The translations under genes were made by a program, and so were the position numbers. Below the pieces are notes generated by a model, which ran no database searches, was not told the origin of the DNA, and worked only from the letters and a program-made list of their open reading frames with translations. From positions 1 to 5,433 of the forward strand of contig JACMLA010000459.1 in NCBI GenBank assembly GCA_014379815.1: 5,433 nucleotides of DNA, read 5' to 3'. Positions 3 to 5,433 of the stretch are shown piece after piece (the first letter of the stretch is position 1; each line of letters starts with the position of its first letter). The stretch comes from Bryobacteraceae bacterium (GTDB taxonomy: Bacteria; Acidobacteriota; Terriglobia; Bryobacterales; Bryobacteraceae).

Positions 3-1073
3 GTCGCACCCGAAAGGATACTTCCGCATATTGATGGACCCTTACGCCGGTGTCTTCAAACCGTCTTCAGCAATAATCCCATAGCTGTTTGGGGTTCGCG
101 TGACGGTCCGCAGAACAGAGCAAAGTTTGATCGAATGCAGCCCGGGGATGAGGTGCTGATTGTTGAGGGTCCAATGGTAAAACTTCTCGGCCGAGTCGCC
201 GCAAAAACGGTAAGCGCCGATCTGTCCCGAGAACTTTGGCAGAACCTTCACGGTGGAGCGACTGCGGGATGGGATTTAATCTATTTCATAGCGAACCCAG
301 TAGAGATCGATGTGCCATTCTCAGTGGTTTGCGAACTCGTGGGCTATGAGCTCGACTATCAACTTCATGGATTCACCGCGGTGGCCAAAGAGAGGCTCGA
401 AACATTTTACTCAATATACGACGATCTCTATTCGATTTTGTTAGCGAAGAAAGAGGGCCTTGCGGTCCAGCAACTGCCTGCCGCTGTCCAGGAGGAGCCT
501 CCGTCACAGATGAATATCGTTGGCGATGAACCCGTCGACGACGATACGCCGGATAAGCCCAAAGAACTATCGGAGCACTTGTGGATGCAATGGACCCTGT
601 TGCGCATGGGACGTCAGGCAGGACAAAAGGTCTGGGCTCCGAGAAGTGACCAATCTCGAATTACCGCCGCACACAAATTTGAGGACTTCGAACCGACGTT
701 CGCCAGTGGCTTGGACACCCAGGTGAAATATGTCGAAAATATAGACGTTGTTTGGAAGGAGGAATTCCGGATTGACGCGGCCTTCGAGGTCGAGAACAGC
801 ACTTCAATCTACTCCGGCCTGCTGCGCTTTGCCGATCTCACTATGGTGGCGCCCAACACCCACTATCCGCTCTTCATCGTCGCTCCAGAAGATCGACGAA
901 ATCGTGTGCGAGAGCAACTGGCACGCCCATCCTTTAAGCACCTCAAAATCGCCGAGAAAGTCCGCTTCCTTTCCTACGACAGAGTTAAGGAGATCGACAA
1001 CTTTTTCGGACCTGAAGCGAAGGGCATTTCCGTCAAGGTTTTCTCGGACAAAGCCGAGAACCTCTCCGACTAG
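3..1073 (+). CDS. PUA/EVE-like + PD-(D/E)XK nuclease-like protein (5'-partial)
   Basis: The reading frame is open from the left edge to TAG at 1071-1073, giving 356 visible residues. An ATG at 135 is probably internal: the 44 codons before it (with AVWGSRDGPQNRAKFDR) read as conserved protein running into QPGDEVLIVEG. Visible residues about 25-130 look like a PUA/EVE-type fold, with a 'W..R..N...F..M..GD' opening and later 'GWDLIYFI' and 'PFSVVCELVGY'. In related restriction proteins such domains bind modified DNA bases. An acidic, Pro-rich linker (about 155-190) follows. The C-terminal part resembles a PD-(D/E)XK nuclease: helix 'SEHLWMQWTLLRMG', then 'ENIDVVW' (Asp about 248), then 'AAFEVENSTSIYSGLLRFADL' (E262 and E264, so ExE rather than ExK). 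A modification-dependent restriction role is inferred. It could instead be a DNA-binding regulator if the ExE site is inactive. The gene converges on the minus-strand operon, 49 nt apart. Its start and promoter are outside the window. Confidence 0.72.
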   Translation, partial: VAPERILPHIDGPLRRCLQTVFSNNPIAVWGSRDGPQNRAKFDRMQPGDEVLIVEGPMVKLLGRVAAKTVSADLSRELWQNLHGGATAGWDLIYFIANPVEIDVPFSVVCELVGYELDYQLHGFTAVAKERLETFYSIYDDLYSILLAKKEGLAVQQLPAAVQEEPPSQMNIVGDEPVDDDTPDKPKELSEHLWMQWTLLRMGRQAGQKVWAPRSDQSRITAAHKFEDFEPTFASGLDTQVKYVENIDVVWKEEFRIDAAFEVENSTSIYSGLLRFADLTMVAPNTHYPLFIVAPEDRRNRVREQLARPSFKHLKIAEKVRFLSYDRVKEIDNFFGPEAKGISVKVFSDKAENLSD

Positions 1074-1122: not shown

Positions 1123-1692
1123 CTAGATCAGGTTTATCACAGTATCGGCAGGCAACGCATCGCTTAATTTCAGGCCGGGATCCTGTATAAAGGCTGGCCG
1201 TTGAAGATTGGTTATGGGGCCTTCGCGAAAATAGAGGTCGAAGGAAACTTGTCGAACCACCTTGGCGAGGAGTTCGAACGGATGTTGGTCTTCGGTCATC
1301 ATCCCGGCCCAGAATGGCATATAGCAGAGGTTCCACGTTGCCGTATAGGCTTTCGCGTCAGAGGCATACCCCCAAATGTGTCGCACTCCATAGCCGGACG
1401 CCCTAAAGAAGAATCCGCTGGCTTCCCGCCATGTAGCTTGGGCTTTGTGGTTCGAATCCAAAATAAGCGAAACGCCGTCTACTTCCACTGTCTCACCGAA
1501 ACCTTTCCCCGGATAAAGGGCACGGCTGCTCCGCGCATGATTAGGATACCTGCATTCAGCTTTAACTTTTTCTGGTGATAGGAAAAAAGAAGCGCTGATC
1601 GCGGCGCGAAGCAGTTCAGTCTCGCCCCCAAACTGCTTAGCCATTTGAGCAATGGCATTTGGCGCGGGATGAGGCCCTTTCAAGAATTTCAT
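1123..1692 (-). CDS. Hypothetical protein, possible HNH-like nuclease
   Basis: 189 residues, the last visible gene of the minus-strand series. Its ATG (1692-1690) overlaps the helicase TGA in an ATGA, with no good Shine-Dalgarno sequence, so translation is probably coupled to the helicase. I do not recognise a named family. Residues 79-89 (DSNHKAQATWR) are followed by 'VRHIWGYASDAKAYTATWNLCYMP' split around H105 and N121, then 'TEDQHP' with H137. The order His-Ile-Trp, a short polar turn, Asn-Leu and a hydrophobic Pro stretch recalls the 'CHIWP...NLVLLP' pattern of some HNH (beta-beta-alpha-Me) nuclease-like proteins. H105 and N121 would then be the catalytic base and the structural Asn. The 16-residue gap to H137 is longer than in classical HNH proteins, so the third position is uncertain. 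No signal peptide or membrane segment is visible. Being fixed to a helicase gene suggests a role in the same complex or pathway, perhaps as the cutting subunit (inference). Confidence 0.65.
   Translation of the reverse strand: MKFLKGPHPAPNAIAQMAKQFGGETELLRAAISASFFLSPEKVKAECRYPNHARSSRALYPGKGFGETVEVDGVSLILDSNHKAQATWREASGFFFRASGYGVRHIWGYASDAKAYTATWNLCYMPFWAGMMTEDQHPFELLAKVVRQVSFDLYFREGPITNLQRPAFIQDPGLKLSDALPADTVINLI
1689..1692 (-). promoter_or_regulatory. ATGA stop/start overlap coupling helicase and HNH-like genes
   Basis: The helicase ends ...CTT AAG ATA TGA and the downstream gene starts ATG AAA TTC, sharing four bases. The 20 nt before the start hold no strong Shine-Dalgarno sequence, so ribosomes probably reinitiate after the helicase stop. 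This keeps the two products in a linked ratio and supports a shared function. Confidence 0.75.
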
Positions 1693-3761
1693 ATCTTAAG
1701 ATCGTCCAAGAACTCCGAGACCGGGCTGGTGCCCGTGATGAGCAGATGATCGCGGGCCCTCGTGCAGGCGACATAAAGCAGGTGTCGCTCCGTATCGTAG
1801 ACTTCCTGCAGATCAGAATCCTCGCCGACAGTCGCGATGCGCTCCTGCAAGGGGATGACCTCATCGTCACACGCCATGACCGCCACGGCCCGGAATTCTA
1901 AGCCTTTGGCCAGGTGCATGGTGCTGATTGAGACGTGGCCACTGGCAGTCGCGACATGCTCATCGAGAACTTTGAAAGACAGAGCCGCTTCTTTAACCGC
2001 AGCTCTTGCTCGGTCCAGTTGTGCCGGGGAGCGGACAAATACCCCGATCTCATGCGGCACGACTCCGGCCTTGGTCTGCCCTGATATCCAGTCAGACACC
2101 GCTTTGATCTCATCCCCTTGGTTTGGCAGAATCTGGAGGACCGGAGGCGGCCCATTGAACACAGAGACCGTGTCGTTACGAATGGTGCTGTTGTCATCCA
2201 CGTCGGTCACTTCCGGTCCGAGCAACCGATCTGCCTGTTGGCGAATCTGGTGGGAGGTCCGGTAGTTGACCCGCAACGTGGTGGAACGCCCCCGGGTATC
2301 TACCCCGAGGACCTTCCATGAAAACGGCTGTTGGAAGATACGCTGCCCCAAATCACCGGTGAAAAAGAGCGCGTTGGGGCGATTCCCGCCCAACGCTGCG
2401 AGGAAACGCAGATGGGCGATGCTGATGTCCTGCGCCTCATCCACAACCGCATGTTCAAAGGGCGTGTTTCTGGCCTTGAGAATAGCTGCGGCCAGGGCGG
2501 TGAACATGCCGGCTTCAGTAGTTAGGCCGAGCTCTTTCAATGCGGAGCGGGCTCGCTCGAAAACAGTCCATAACACCGCGCGTTGCGCCTCCGGGTGCCG
2601 GGTCTTCCGCCCGAGCCGGGCCACTTCCCGATAGGCTTCCTTACTTTCAACCTGCCAGGCATCCACCACTTGCTCCCATTCCGTGAGCAGGAAATGCAGG
2701 CTGAATTTGTGCCCGCTGATGCCGGCAGATGCCTCCCGCATGATATCGCGCAGCTGCTCCGGAGATACAATCGTCACCGGCCCGATATGGGCCTTGGAGA
2801 GCCTGAGTCCGATGGCCCTGATTGAGTGGACATCAATTCGATCTGCCAGGCGTGGCTCGTTGCCCAGCAGCCGCCTTAACTTTGTCTGCAATGCACTCGC
2901 CAGCGTATCCGAGAATGTCGCCAGCAAAACGCGCGCGTCGGGTTGTGTACGAGCCAGATGGACGGCGCGGTGCAAAGCCACGATGGTCTTGCCCGTGCCC
3001 GCAGAACCGGAAACCCGCGCCGGACCGGTGTAATCGCGTTCGACCAGCTCTCTTTGCTCGGGATGCAAAAAGACAGTCCATTTTTCCCACGGAAATTCGA
3101 GAGCCCGTTCCAATTCCTCGACATTGGCCATCACCCGGAACCGACGCTGTGCGTCTGGATGCTCGAAAGGATCGGCCGCTGTCGCCACAGGCGCAGCCAC
3201 CCGGGGCTTGCCCCCAGTCGCCAGTTCCAGGAGCGCTTCGGCCGCCTCGGCGGGCAGCCTTTCTGCCAGCGCCAGCAGGCTCTCGCTGGTCGCCTGCCGC
3301 ACATCTTTGATCCATTCCACTGGCACGCCGTAGCTGAGCAACTCGTCGTCGCTGGCGTCGGTAAACAGGGCCGGCTTCGGTGCGGACGGCACCTCATTCT
3401 GCACATATACCGGCACCAGAATCTCCTTCACCGTTTCACGGATCTCCACCAATTGCGCAGCACCCGTCTTGGGGTGGGTCTCCAGTTTCCGGCGTTCGGC
3501 CCAGTCGTAAGCCTTATCGTGGTGGTCAACGTAGCAAAGCAGCAAACTACCTGCCGTCTTATGGATGATCAGACGTATGTCCCGGCCCACCCGCACGGAC
3601 CAAAAGTTCTTGTCCTTCGAGTTGTCGATCTTGTGCTGCTGCATGCCGGGGTTGACCGGATTCATCTGCAGATCGAAGGCCGTCATTTTGGCCGCCTTTT
3701 GCTCATCACCTGTCAACCTCGCGAGGCTGTCCGTGAAGGTATCGGCGATACGAAAATCCAT
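1689..3761 (-). CDS. RelE/ParE-like domain fused to UvrD/PcrA-type SF1 helicase
   Basis: 690 residues from ATG 3761. A TTG 14 codons upstream (3803) extends the frame but overlaps the previous gene, and conserved-looking protein begins at MDFRIADTF, so I prefer the ATG. Residues 1-100 resemble a RelE/ParE toxin-like fold ('FTDSLARL', 'FWSVRVGRDIRLIIHK', 'LLLCYVDHHDKAYDWAERR'). A linker of about 120 residues, partly Ala/Glu-rich, follows. The helicase core has all expected motifs in order: Q-motif Gln about 236; Walker A GSAGTGKT (252-259); Ia 'LLATFSDTLA'; II DEAQD (441-445); III 'TGDLGQRIF'; IV 'LRVNYRTS' (Arg about 500); V 'ISTMHLAKGLEF'; VI 'LLYVACTRAR' with the Arg finger. It should be an active ATP-driven 3'-5' DNA translocase/helicase in the cytoplasm. 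No C-terminal RecB-type nuclease domain is present. RelE-UvrD fusions recur in bacteria. The N-terminal domain may be a binding module rather than an mRNA-cutting toxin. It lies 32 nt after the DAC-like gene and overlaps the next gene by 4 nt. Confidence 0.92.
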   Translation of the reverse strand: MDFRIADTFTDSLARLTGDEQKAAKMTAFDLQMNPVNPGMQQHKIDNSKDKNFWSVRVGRDIRLIIHKTAGSLLLCYVDHHDKAYDWAERRKLETHPKTGAAQLVEIRETVKEILVPVYVQNEVPSAPKPALFTDASDDELLSYGVPVEWIKDVRQATSESLLALAERLPAEAAEALLELATGGKPRVAAPVATAADPFEHPDAQRRFRVMANVEELERALEFPWEKWTVFLHPEQRELVERDYTGPARVSGSAGTGKTIVALHRAVHLARTQPDARVLLATFSDTLASALQTKLRRLLGNEPRLADRIDVHSIRAIGLRLSKAHIGPVTIVSPEQLRDIMREASAGISGHKFSLHFLLTEWEQVVDAWQVESKEAYREVARLGRKTRHPEAQRAVLWTVFERARSALKELGLTTEAGMFTALAAAILKARNTPFEHAVVDEAQDISIAHLRFLAALGGNRPNALFFTGDLGQRIFQQPFSWKVLGVDTRGRSTTLRVNYRTSHQIRQQADRLLGPEVTDVDDNSTIRNDTVSVFNGPPPVLQILPNQGDEIKAVSDWISGQTKAGVVPHEIGVFVRSPAQLDRARAAVKEAALSFKVLDEHVATASGHVSISTMHLAKGLEFRAVAVMACDDEVIPLQERIATVGEDSDLQEVYDTERHLLYVACTRARDHLLITGTSPVSEFLDDLKI

Positions 3762-3793
3762 GATATGTTGTCGCCTAGAAGAGCAGGAACTGG

Positions 3794-5047
3794 TTACGCG
3801 CAAACTTCGAACGCTATCTCGGGATGACTTTTGGGCCCTCGATCTGTAAATGCAGTAATTCCTCCATCGGAAGAAATTTTCACAGCCAATCCTAGACGAG
3901 ACAAAGCTTTTGCTGCCGCACGTCGCCCACCTCCATCACTGCCACCAGGAACTTTCACGATCGCACCAGCAGCTAATACCAGTCCATCGTGGTTTAATAC
4001 GATGGCTCCATCTAAGGCAGCCAGCTCCTCTCGAATAGGCCGAGGAATTTCATCGAATGGGCGACCTATAAGATGCGCCAACAACGTCGATTTGTTTGAG
4101 TTGCCCAAAGACAACAAGTCGTCGTCGCTCAAATAAGTGCGGTGTTTCCCGCTACGGCTACGCTTTGCCACAGCTATACACCCGCCGGTTCTCGAGAACG
4201 AGATATCGAGGCAACTAGCGTAGACGGCCTGCATCAATGCTCTTGTCTTAGAAGACCAGGTCATTCGGGCGATCATCGCCGAATGCGCAAAATGAGACCA
4301 CTTGCCGCGCCTATAAGCGAATTGAAGTTTAGAACCCCTAAACACGAGGATTTCTCCATGGCGATTTAAGGTAAATACTACACGTCCGCCGCTCGACCAA
4401 TCTGCGATTGGAAGATATCTGCGCGGGGTCTGCCAGTGGTCTTTCGTAATTTCGCCCAACGCCAAGTGCTCAACAACATGCCCCGATGGCGATAGCACTA
4501 GAAGAGTATCCAAGCCGTTGCTCAGAACCTTTGCGAAATCTTGATCAATAATTTGCTCTAAATGCAGGTTGGAAATTCGCGATGCTTGGGGTGATGGGTC
4601 CACCCCGATAGCGACTGAGATACGTTGGCCCTCATAGGTCTCCGAAGCCCATTTTCTCAGCATCGTGAGGATTGTCGGCAACAGGTCATCGCCCACTGTT
4701 CTATGCTGCACAGACCAAGCCACTGCATCCTGAGAACATTTATCCACCAAGTAGTGAAAAAAGGGTTCACCAGAAGCTCCGAGTTTCTCGCGAAATGCGC
4801 GAACGAATTGCGTCGCGATTTTCACGTCGTCGCTTTCGAAAGGATGGGTAGTTCTTAGTAAGCGAAAACAATTGGGCCACTTCGGATCTGGCCAGATGAG
4901 AAGGCTATTGGCTCCCTCAAGTAGAACGATATTCTTAGATGGATCCGAAATTTGAGATAGCTGCAGCTCTGAACCGGCAAACATCGGGACCATATTGCTC
5001 GACAGTATCTCGAAATACTGTGCCGCAGAAAGTGCCGCGCCTTTCAT
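3794..5047 (-). CDS. DAC (DisA_N-like) nucleotide-cyclase/sensor protein with long N-terminal domain
   Basis: 417 residues from ATG 5047. A TTG at 5065 would overlap the upstream gene; the ATG lies 1 nt after that gene's TAA and fits translational coupling. The C-terminal part (about 280-417) matches the diadenylate cyclase fold in motif order and spacing: 'GGCIAVAKR' (like the opening strand of DAC domains), 'LDGAIVLNHDGLVLAAG' with DGA at 346-348, 'GGGRRAAAKALSRLG' at 372-386, and 'LAVKISSDGGITAF' with the Ser motif near 392. Active cyclases make c-di-AMP from two ATP, using DGA, (T)RHR and a Ser-Glu motif. Here TRHR reads GGRR, so Thr, the first Arg and His are lost. Catalysis may be changed or absent, leaving a nucleotide sensor. 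Residues 1-280 are mixed alpha/beta with no membrane segment and are probably a sensor or partner domain; DAC domains with varied N-terminal sensors are known from nucleotide-signalling conflict systems. An ordinary DisA is unlikely because its DAC domain is N-terminal and is followed by HhH DNA-binding regions. Confidence 0.8.
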   Translation of the reverse strand: MKGAALSAAQYFEILSSNMVPMFAGSELQLSQISDPSKNIVLLEGANSLLIWPDPKWPNCFRLLRTTHPFESDDVKIATQFVRAFREKLGASGEPFFHYLVDKCSQDAVAWSVQHRTVGDDLLPTILTMLRKWASETYEGQRISVAIGVDPSPQASRISNLHLEQIIDQDFAKVLSNGLDTLLVLSPSGHVVEHLALGEITKDHWQTPRRYLPIADWSSGGRVVFTLNRHGEILVFRGSKLQFAYRRGKWSHFAHSAMIARMTWSSKTRALMQAVYASCLDISFSRTGGCIAVAKRSRSGKHRTYLSDDDLLSLGNSNKSTLLAHLIGRPFDEIPRPIREELAALDGAIVLNHDGLVLAAGAIVKVPGGSDGGGRRAAAKALSRLGLAVKISSDGGITAFTDRGPKSHPEIAFEVCA

Positions 5048-5051
5048 GTTA
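5045..5051 (-). promoter_or_regulatory. Near-abutting stop and start (TAA-C-ATG) before the DAC-like gene
   Basis: The upstream frame ends in TAA (5051-5049) and, after one base, the ATG of the DAC-like gene follows (5047-5045). The nearest purine-rich stretch, GGGAAAAA, ends about 9 nt before the ATG, with its GGGA core about 12 nt before it, so it is only a weak ribosome site. This decides for the ATG over the upstream TTG at 5065 and points to coupled translation within one operon. Confidence 0.6.
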
Positions 5052-5433
5052 ACTGTTTTTCCCAATCAGCAACCAGCGGCGGCCGCCAACTTGCTCAGCG
5101 AAGTTACTCAGCATCCAATCGCTGTGCCGATATTCCTTCGATCTCGGTCGATACACCCAGTACTCGTACGAATTGCGGCCTATGCATCGCATTCTCAAAA
5201 TCGCTGGGCGCGGAAATCCGGCACCACCAATTTCTATGGTGAAGTTGTGGTGATGCTTCACGACTTTACGCTGTTCGGGCTCAGACTGGTCCTGGCTATT
5301 TAGAAGCCTGAGAGTTGGCCGAGATGATGCATTTCCACGCACACCAAAAAATTGCTCCCACACGTCTATTGGAGGTTGAACTTGCGTCGCTCGACCAGCC
5401 CCTTGCTCATTAGTTAAATCCATCAAGAGTTCG
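5049..5433 (-). CDS. Unrecognised protein, C-terminal part or small complete protein
   Basis: The frame is open from the right edge to TAA at 5051-5049, with 127 visible residues. A TTG (5426) and an ATG (5423) lie at the very edge. Neither has a visible ribosome site in the few bases left, so this may be a complete 124-residue protein or the C-terminal domain of a larger one; I lean to the latter. The visible part starts polar and low in structure ('NEQGAGRATQVQPPIDVWEQFF'), then turns into what looks like a small beta-rich domain: 'HHNFTIEIGGAGFPRPAILRM', 'GRNSYEYWVYRP', 'YRHSDWMLSNF' and 'GGRRWLLIG'. The many aromatic and basic residues would suit nucleic-acid binding, as in C-terminal domains of some PLD-type restriction proteins, but I cannot assign a family. 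It is the first visible member of the operon, 1 nt before the DAC-like gene. Confidence 0.6.
   Translation of the reverse strand, partial: ELLMDLTNEQGAGRATQVQPPIDVWEQFFGVRGNASSRPTLRLLNSQDQSEPEQRKVVKHHHNFTIEIGGAGFPRPAILRMRCIGRNSYEYWVYRPRSKEYRHSDWMLSNFAEQVGGRRWLLIGKNS

What the first reader, a model, noticed from the sequence alone, without database searches (positions are those of the whole stretch)
3794..5047. DAC-like domain with an altered RHR motif in a helicase operon
Seen: DGA, then a Gly/Arg-rich loop, then an S-S-D-G-G strand, in the order and spacing of diadenylate cyclases (about 29 residues from DGA to the RHR position and about 17 to the Ser motif). Known: DisA, CdaA and related cyclases use (T)RHR to hold ATP. 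Here the loop reads GGGRRAAA, so only the last Arg is kept. Inference: the domain either makes a different product, uses a different nucleotide, or senses one. Its C-terminal position after about 280 residues of unknown sequence also differs from DisA and CdaA. This is the best candidate in the window for an undescribed signalling step.
Basis: partly seen in the sequence, partly recalled or inferred. Interest (0 to 1): 0.78.

Follow-up and report, generated by a model that had tools for sequence, protein, structure and literature searches.

The report
Divergent cyclase beside a DNA reader
This gene encodes an unusual relative of the enzymes that make the alarm molecule c-di-AMP; it follows directly after a gene for a small protein shaped like the DNA-reading part of restriction enzymes, and several of its relatives lie among anti-phage genes, so it may be a DNA-triggered signalling step in bacterial defence.

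Summary

New findings: (1) the gene 1 nt upstream encodes a protein with the fold of B3 DNA-recognition domains of restriction enzymes; 16 of its 54 homologue clusters share their longest contig length with a DAC homologue. (2) The two nearest genomic relatives lie in type III restriction-modification clusters; four others lie beside type I R-M, BREX, CBASS or DRT genes. A DAC in a CBASS-like system is already shown to be needed for defence (PMC13092281).

Best reading: a divergent, probably active DAC-type cyclase, a signalling accessory of DNA-targeting defence. Product, trigger and effector are untested.

The parts
3794..5047 (-). DAC-like protein, 417 aa (GxR-K-SxDG clade); a TTG extension to 5065 is possible
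   Evidence: ORF; 113 database hits, the window's own protein among them; AF2 model pLDDT 95.3
3797..4258 (-). C-terminal DAC-fold domain, residues 264-417
4004..4012 (-). DGA motif, residues 346-348
   Evidence: D346 in 229 of 230 distinct sequences with a letter there
3911..3934 (-). GGGRRAAA, residues 372-379, at the (T)RHR position; R375 = first Arg of RHR
   Evidence: hhalign register; R375 227 of 228 distinct sequences
3863..3880 (-). K-I-S-S-D-G, residues 390-395: near-invariant Lys plus Ser/Asp
   Evidence: K390 225 of 227, S392 227 of 227, D394 226 of 227; Lys there in 0 of 62 parsed ordinary DACs
4259..5047 (-). N-terminal region, residues 1-263, putative sensor; residues 1-96 weakly GAF-like
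5049..5432 (-). Small partner, B3-like DNA-recognition fold; frame runs off the window edge, ATG at 5423; stop 1 nt before the DAC ATG
1689..3761 (-). UvrD-type helicase (ATG 3761; TTG 3803), N-terminal part at best weakly RelE/HigB-like; ends in an ATGA overlap with the next gene
   Evidence: PF00580 8.6e-17, PF13361 9.6e-16, PF05015 only 0.11; relative in L001; junction
1123..1692 (-). 189-aa protein without family match, last gene of the presumed minus-strand operon
   Evidence: no Pfam, NCBIfam or PADLOC match

Best explanation
The ORF is a divergent DAC-fold protein of a broad clade in which (T)RHR has become G-G-R-x-A, with a new, nearly invariant Lys two residues before the Ser of the third motif. 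It most likely still condenses ATP into a cyclic dinucleotide (c-di-AMP or a close relative): D346 and G347 position ATP and the attacking hydroxyl, R375, S392 and probably K390 hold the phosphates, and two protomers meet head to head as in other DACs. In the window's own clade it is probably co-transcribed with a stand-alone B3-like DNA-recognition protein and lies in or next to type III R-M clusters. The proposed mechanism is that the B3 protein, or the R-M machinery, reports foreign or unmodified DNA, the N-terminal region of the DAC protein receives that signal, and the nucleotide product alters a defence effector. Shown by computation: fold, motif conservation, gene pairing, defence neighbours at some loci. 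Inferred: catalysis, product, the DNA trigger, the effector.
For: DAC fold. Catalytic positions conserved among 233 distinct sequences, gaps left out: D346 229/230, R375 227/228, K390 225/227, S392 227/227, D394 226/227 (alignment made). 11 of 12 genomes that carry the clade or its distant branch also carry a match over the Pfam DAC cut-off elsewhere, in G002 only a partial one, so it is not the housekeeping copy. Partner: 16 of 54 small-protein clusters have the same longest-contig length as a DAC homologue, 14 of the 24 on contigs of 2.5 kb or more; the stop-to-ATG gap is 1 nt in the window and in L001, with a short overlap in L002; the partner has a B3 fold. Context: type III Mod in L001 and L002, plus GajA/GajB-like genes in L001; hsdM-DAC-hsdM-hsdS-hsdR in L053; PglZ-BrxL-DAC in L067; type II CBASS genes in L008; DRT UG9 genes in L004. 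[quoted passage not shown] 15 of 30 DAC homologues lie with CBASS (PMC13092281, section 7 read).
Against: No activity is known to me for any member of this clade. Whether the DS-2 DAC belongs to it was not tested. Defence genes were confirmed at 6 of the 15 loci whose neighbours were scanned with family models or seen in annotation, and some of those scans (L053, L067) were chosen because the genes looked like defence genes by eye, so that share is biased upward; I listed ORFs at 38 loci. Several relatives sit in apparently ordinary chromosomal places (five beside what reads as rpoB), so the family as a whole is not a dedicated defence family. The window ends at the partner gene, so the R-M genes themselves are not seen here; in L001 the Res-like gene rests on one Pfam match (4.5e-6) and had no PADLOC match at 1e-10. 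No nucleotide-gated effector was recognised. The Thr and second Arg of TRHR are lost.
Confidence: 0.58

Rival explanations
1. A non-catalytic nucleotide sensor: the DAC fold binds ATP or a cyclic dinucleotide and controls the neighbouring helicase or R-M enzyme, but makes no product.
For: The TRHR Thr and second Arg are gone; the Thr contacts phosphate in SaDacA (T207, PMC6368335, passages read). The genomes searched mostly have another DAC (11 of 12).
Against: The DGA Asp, first Arg and Ser stay nearly invariant over 233 distinct sequences, which a pure binding role would not obviously require; catalytic mutants of a defence DAC abolish defence.
Confidence: 0.23
2. An active DAC with housekeeping or DNA-damage signalling that merely hitch-hikes on genomic islands; the defence neighbours are incidental.
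For: Rare and patchy: 6 of 246, 12 of 395, 3 of 339, 1 of 288, 6 of 296 sampled genomes, each count including the genome used as centre because it had a hit (the first at a laxer E-value); mobile-element neighbours in several loci; five copies beside rpoB by eye.
Against: In L053 it overlaps hsdM by 13 nt and ends 8 nt before the second hsdM; in L067 it starts 21 nt after BrxL; in the window's clade it is paired with a B3 protein.
Confidence: 0.17
3. A decayed DAC copy that has lost its motif by drift.
For: Sub-threshold Pfam score.
Against: None of 228 distinct homologues with letters there keeps RHR, and the altered motif is itself conserved; the frame is open.
Confidence: 0.02

Closest known systems
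DisA / CdaA / CdaS diadenylate cyclases (Pfam DAC, PF02457)
   Same: Fold, DGA, first Arg of RHR, Ser motif in order and spacing; five homologues are named 'DisA with diadenylate cyclase activity' by JGI and one 'diadenylate cyclase' at NCBI
   Different: TRHR replaced by GGR[T/R/L/K]A, extra Lys390, about 263-residue N-terminal region without a Pfam family, sub-threshold Pfam score
DS-2, CBASS plus DAC defence system (DefensePredictor, PMC13092281)
   Same: A DAC encoded with a phospholipase and a cGAS-like enzyme; the plasmid relative L008 has such neighbours plus E1-E2 and JAB
   Different: No CD-NTase or phospholipase was found in the window; it has a B3-like protein and a helicase. Homology of the DS-2 DAC to this clade is untested
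B3 DNA-recognition domains of restriction enzymes (BfiI, EcoRII, UbaLAI, LlaJI.R1)
   Different: Here it is a free-standing protein of about 125 aa, not joined to a nuclease, and next to a cyclase gene
Type III R-M and Gabija (GajA/GajB)
   Same: Nearest relatives L001 and L002 lie beside type III Mod genes and Res-like genes; L001 also has GajA- and GajB-like genes
   Different: A cyclase and a B3 protein are not part of these systems as I know them (recalled)

Membership tests
Diadenylate cyclase (DisA/CdaA/CdaS type) | DAC fold | tested here: met
Diadenylate cyclase (DisA/CdaA/CdaS type) | DGA motif | tested here: met
   residues 346-348; D346 in 229 of 230 distinct sequences
Diadenylate cyclase (DisA/CdaA/CdaS type) | (T)RHR motif | tested here: not met
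   GGRRA; only the first Arg is kept; RHR at this place in none. Of 62 parsed ordinary DACs 50 have RHR, 9 RH+L/A/W, 2 RSR, 1 is a spurious frame
Diadenylate cyclase (DisA/CdaA/CdaS type) | Score over the Pfam cut-off | tested here: not met
   15.1 bits against 27
Diadenylate cyclase (DisA/CdaA/CdaS type) | Makes c-di-AMP from ATP | not testable with these tools
   needs an enzyme assay
B3 DNA-recognition domain (partner, 5049-5423) | B3-like fold | tested here: met
B3 DNA-recognition domain (partner, 5049-5423) | Binds DNA at a specific site | not testable with these tools
   needs a binding assay
CBASS | CD-NTase with its effector in the same operon | tested here: not met
   No such match among the window's five proteins scanned; present beside the relative L008
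Type III restriction-modification | Mod and Res genes | tested here: inconclusive
   No match within the 5433 bases, but the window ends at the partner gene that follows Mod in L001 and L002
Gabija | GajA plus GajB | tested here: not met
   The helicase matches GajB models (best 1.1e-23) but a NERD+UvrD model better (8e-29), and no GajA match was found

The most novel reading that the evidence does not exclude
A DNA-sequence alarm: a free-standing B3 protein reads unmodified or foreign DNA at the site class of a type III R-M system and switches on a rebuilt DAC (G-x-R plus Lys instead of RHR), which emits a cyclic dinucleotide, possibly not c-di-AMP, as a second line of defence behind restriction. 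It would be a DAC-based counterpart of cGAS.
Probability: 0.22. Interest if true: 0.88.

Novelty: new variant of a known kind. Interest (0 to 1): 0.62.

Why it matters
DACs are known mainly as makers of a housekeeping and osmotic signal; one has now been shown to matter in a CBASS-like defence system (PMC13092281). This clade is large (113 and 371 hits in two capped searches, overlap not removed) and most of the named entries listed are called hypothetical. A rebuilt active site, neighbours from five kinds of defence system at six loci and, in one branch, a dedicated DNA-recognition partner would extend cyclic-nucleotide defence to restriction-modification and give a simple two-gene system in which the trigger (a DNA site) and the product can both be tested directly.

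Tried and rejected
Rejected: decay. Rejected: 'the last Arg is the one kept'. Rejected as proof of a new product: loss of RHR alone, since 9 of 62 parsed ordinary DACs also lack the last Arg (of 71 rows 9 could not be parsed, and one parsed row, HRVS in L109, is a spurious frame; L026 and L027 are near-copies; the pattern required the first Arg, so it says nothing about that Arg).

Led nowhere: no relative confirmed in IMG/VR by the DAC or partner alignment (pattern-limited scans); no structural relative among viral proteins at E<=0.001; sequence searches against PDB chains gave no DAC hit, neither the single protein (none) nor the profile (9 hits at E 0.94-1.9 that I take as chance); E. coli DNA search with the CBASS-linked plasmid gene, no match, so the E. 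coli DS-2 DAC could not be compared; plasmid searches gave the same three records each time and phage searches the same one. The idea that K390 stands in for the lost Arg could not be checked on coordinates, which the tools do not hand out.

Literature: Galperin 2023, 'All DACs in a row', cited in PMC13092281 for the CBASS link, is not held; I could not check whether it lists this clade. Searches for diadenylate cyclase with DACNV, CBASS or restriction-modification, and c-di-AMP with antiphage defense showed no paper on a B3 partner or an R-M-embedded DAC, judged from titles and abstract starts in the listings (one search listed 15 of 527, 15 of 268).

Full report

The motif. The profile comparison and the intermediate GSRTKAA branch both give G373=G, G374=T, R375=first R, R376=H, A377=last R. 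The alignment has 234 rows, 233 distinct (the window plus the proteins listed, the window's own occurring twice). Without the duplicate and leaving gaps out, R375 is Arg in 227 of 228, D346 is kept in 229 of 230, S392 in 227 of 227, D394 in 226 of 227, and K390 is Lys in 225 of 227. With the duplicate, position 376 is T 92, R 76, L 40, K 10 and never His, and position 377 is Ala in 214 of 229; no row has RHR at the motif, though six have the letters RHR elsewhere. In 62 parsed ordinary DACs the K390 position is never Lys. That Lys may replace the lost Arg, which is inference. The same control shows RHL, RHA or RHW in 9 of 62 ordinary DACs, so losing the last Arg is not in itself a mark of a new product. 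In SaDacA the Thr before RHR contacts the phosphates and the DGA Asp and Gly the ribose (PMC6368335, passages read); the head-to-head dimer requirement is from PMC8573169 (passages read).

The surroundings. On the minus strand the window reads B3 partner, DAC, UvrD helicase, 189-aa protein, with an ATGA overlap between the last two; a convergent ORF at 3-1073 matches a PADLOC type II restriction enzyme model at 2e-10. The two genome loci in the window's branch (tree of 53 rows, clade of 13 at 100/97, in which L001 and L002 each appear a second time as P0039 and P0044) are L001 (Phycisphaerae) and L002 (Opitutaceae). L001 reads Res-like (Pfam RE_endonuc 4.5e-6; no PADLOC match at 1e-10), Bro-N, type III Mod, B3 partner, DAC, HATPase, GajA-like, GajB-like, and a relative of the window's helicase. 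L002 reads Res pieces, Mod pieces, B3 partner, DAC, the first two split over several frames. More distant members: inside a type I R-M operon, hsdM-DAC-hsdM-hsdS-hsdR, overlapping the first hsdM by 13 nt and ending 8 nt before the second (L053); 21 nt after BrxL, which follows PglZ, of BREX (L067); near phospholipase, CD-NTase, E1-E2 and JAB genes of type II CBASS on an Agrobacterium vitis plasmid, on the opposite strand (L008); beside a UG9-type defence reverse transcriptase, its PolA partner and an integrase (L004).

How general. I listed ORFs around 38 loci (L001-L010, L052-L070, L078-L083, L087-L089; in L063, L080 and L082 the DAC frame was not among the ORFs chosen). Some neighbours were scanned with family models at 13 of them (L001-L005, L008, L052, L053, L058, L060, L064, L065, L067; at several only one or two genes), and L009 and L010 were seen in annotation: 6 of these 15 had genes of defence systems. 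L053 and L067 were scanned because their genes looked like defence genes by eye, so no rate is claimed. The other 23 were judged by eye from ORF starts only. Five loci (L007, L054-L057) sit beside a long ORF that I read as RpoB from memory. The family is rare: 6 of 246 genomes in the phylum of G001 (E<=1e-10), 12 of 395, 3 of 339, 1 of 288, 6 of 296 and 1 of 2 in five other phyla (E<=1e-20), and 4 of 298 in the class of G001; each count includes the centre genome, chosen because it had a hit, and some are distant-branch hits. Of 12 genomes with a hit, 11 have another match over the Pfam DAC cut-off, in G002 only a partial one, so this is an extra copy.

Prior work. DefensePredictor (PMC13092281; section 7 read; further passages) reports DS-2, a phospholipase, a cGAS and a DAC; [quoted passage not shown] It cites Galperin 2023 for the CBASS link; that paper is not held. 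So a DAC in defence is known; what I did not find in the searches named under Tried and rejected is the B3 partner, the R-M, BREX and DRT settings, or this altered motif.

Judgement. The fold is near certain (0.97). Catalysis is likely (about 0.7) from the conserved Asp, Arg and Ser. A role in defence for the window's branch is likely (about 0.7). That the B3 protein is the trigger is a hypothesis (about 0.3). Because RHR and the Pfam cut-off were tested and not met, I do not file it as a DisA/CdaA-type DAC; I call it a DAC-fold clade that probably works like a DAC.

Noticed in passing
window 3-1073 (+): Convergent ORF open at the window edge; its C-terminal part matches a PADLOC type II restriction enzyme model (PDLC03534, E 2.2e-10), no Pfam match.
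   Followed up: partly
window 1689-3803 (-): UvrD helicase with an N-terminal extension that resembles RelE/HigB only weakly (PF05015 E 0.11); a relative ends the L001 cluster.
   Followed up: partly
L009 9938-11101: Paracoccus albus plasmid relative (52% identical to the Agrobacterium one) ends within the DAC domain just before an IS3 family transposase gene; described only.
   Followed up: no
L004 6744-12501: DAC beside an integrase and a UG9-type defence reverse transcriptase with its PolA partner.
   Followed up: partly
L007, L054-L057: A branch of the family of about 446 aa keeps one chromosomal place beside what reads by eye as rpoB and a sensor-like gene, suggesting a vertical, non-island role.
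   Followed up: no
L064, L065: Members with longer N-terminal parts (611-616 aa frames) from a genome in the phylum of the Cyanobium locus; L064 lies beside an encapsulin gene (PF04454).
   Followed up: no
L011 5322-6530 (MT837587.1): A short unverified phage record from human faeces carries a 25%-identical relative by tblastn; the ORF lister found no whole frame there.
   Followed up: no
L022, L023, L026-L030, L102, L145, L148: Ordinary DACs over the Pfam cut-off with RHA, RHL or RHW instead of RHR: the last Arg of RHR varies in nature.
   Followed up: partly
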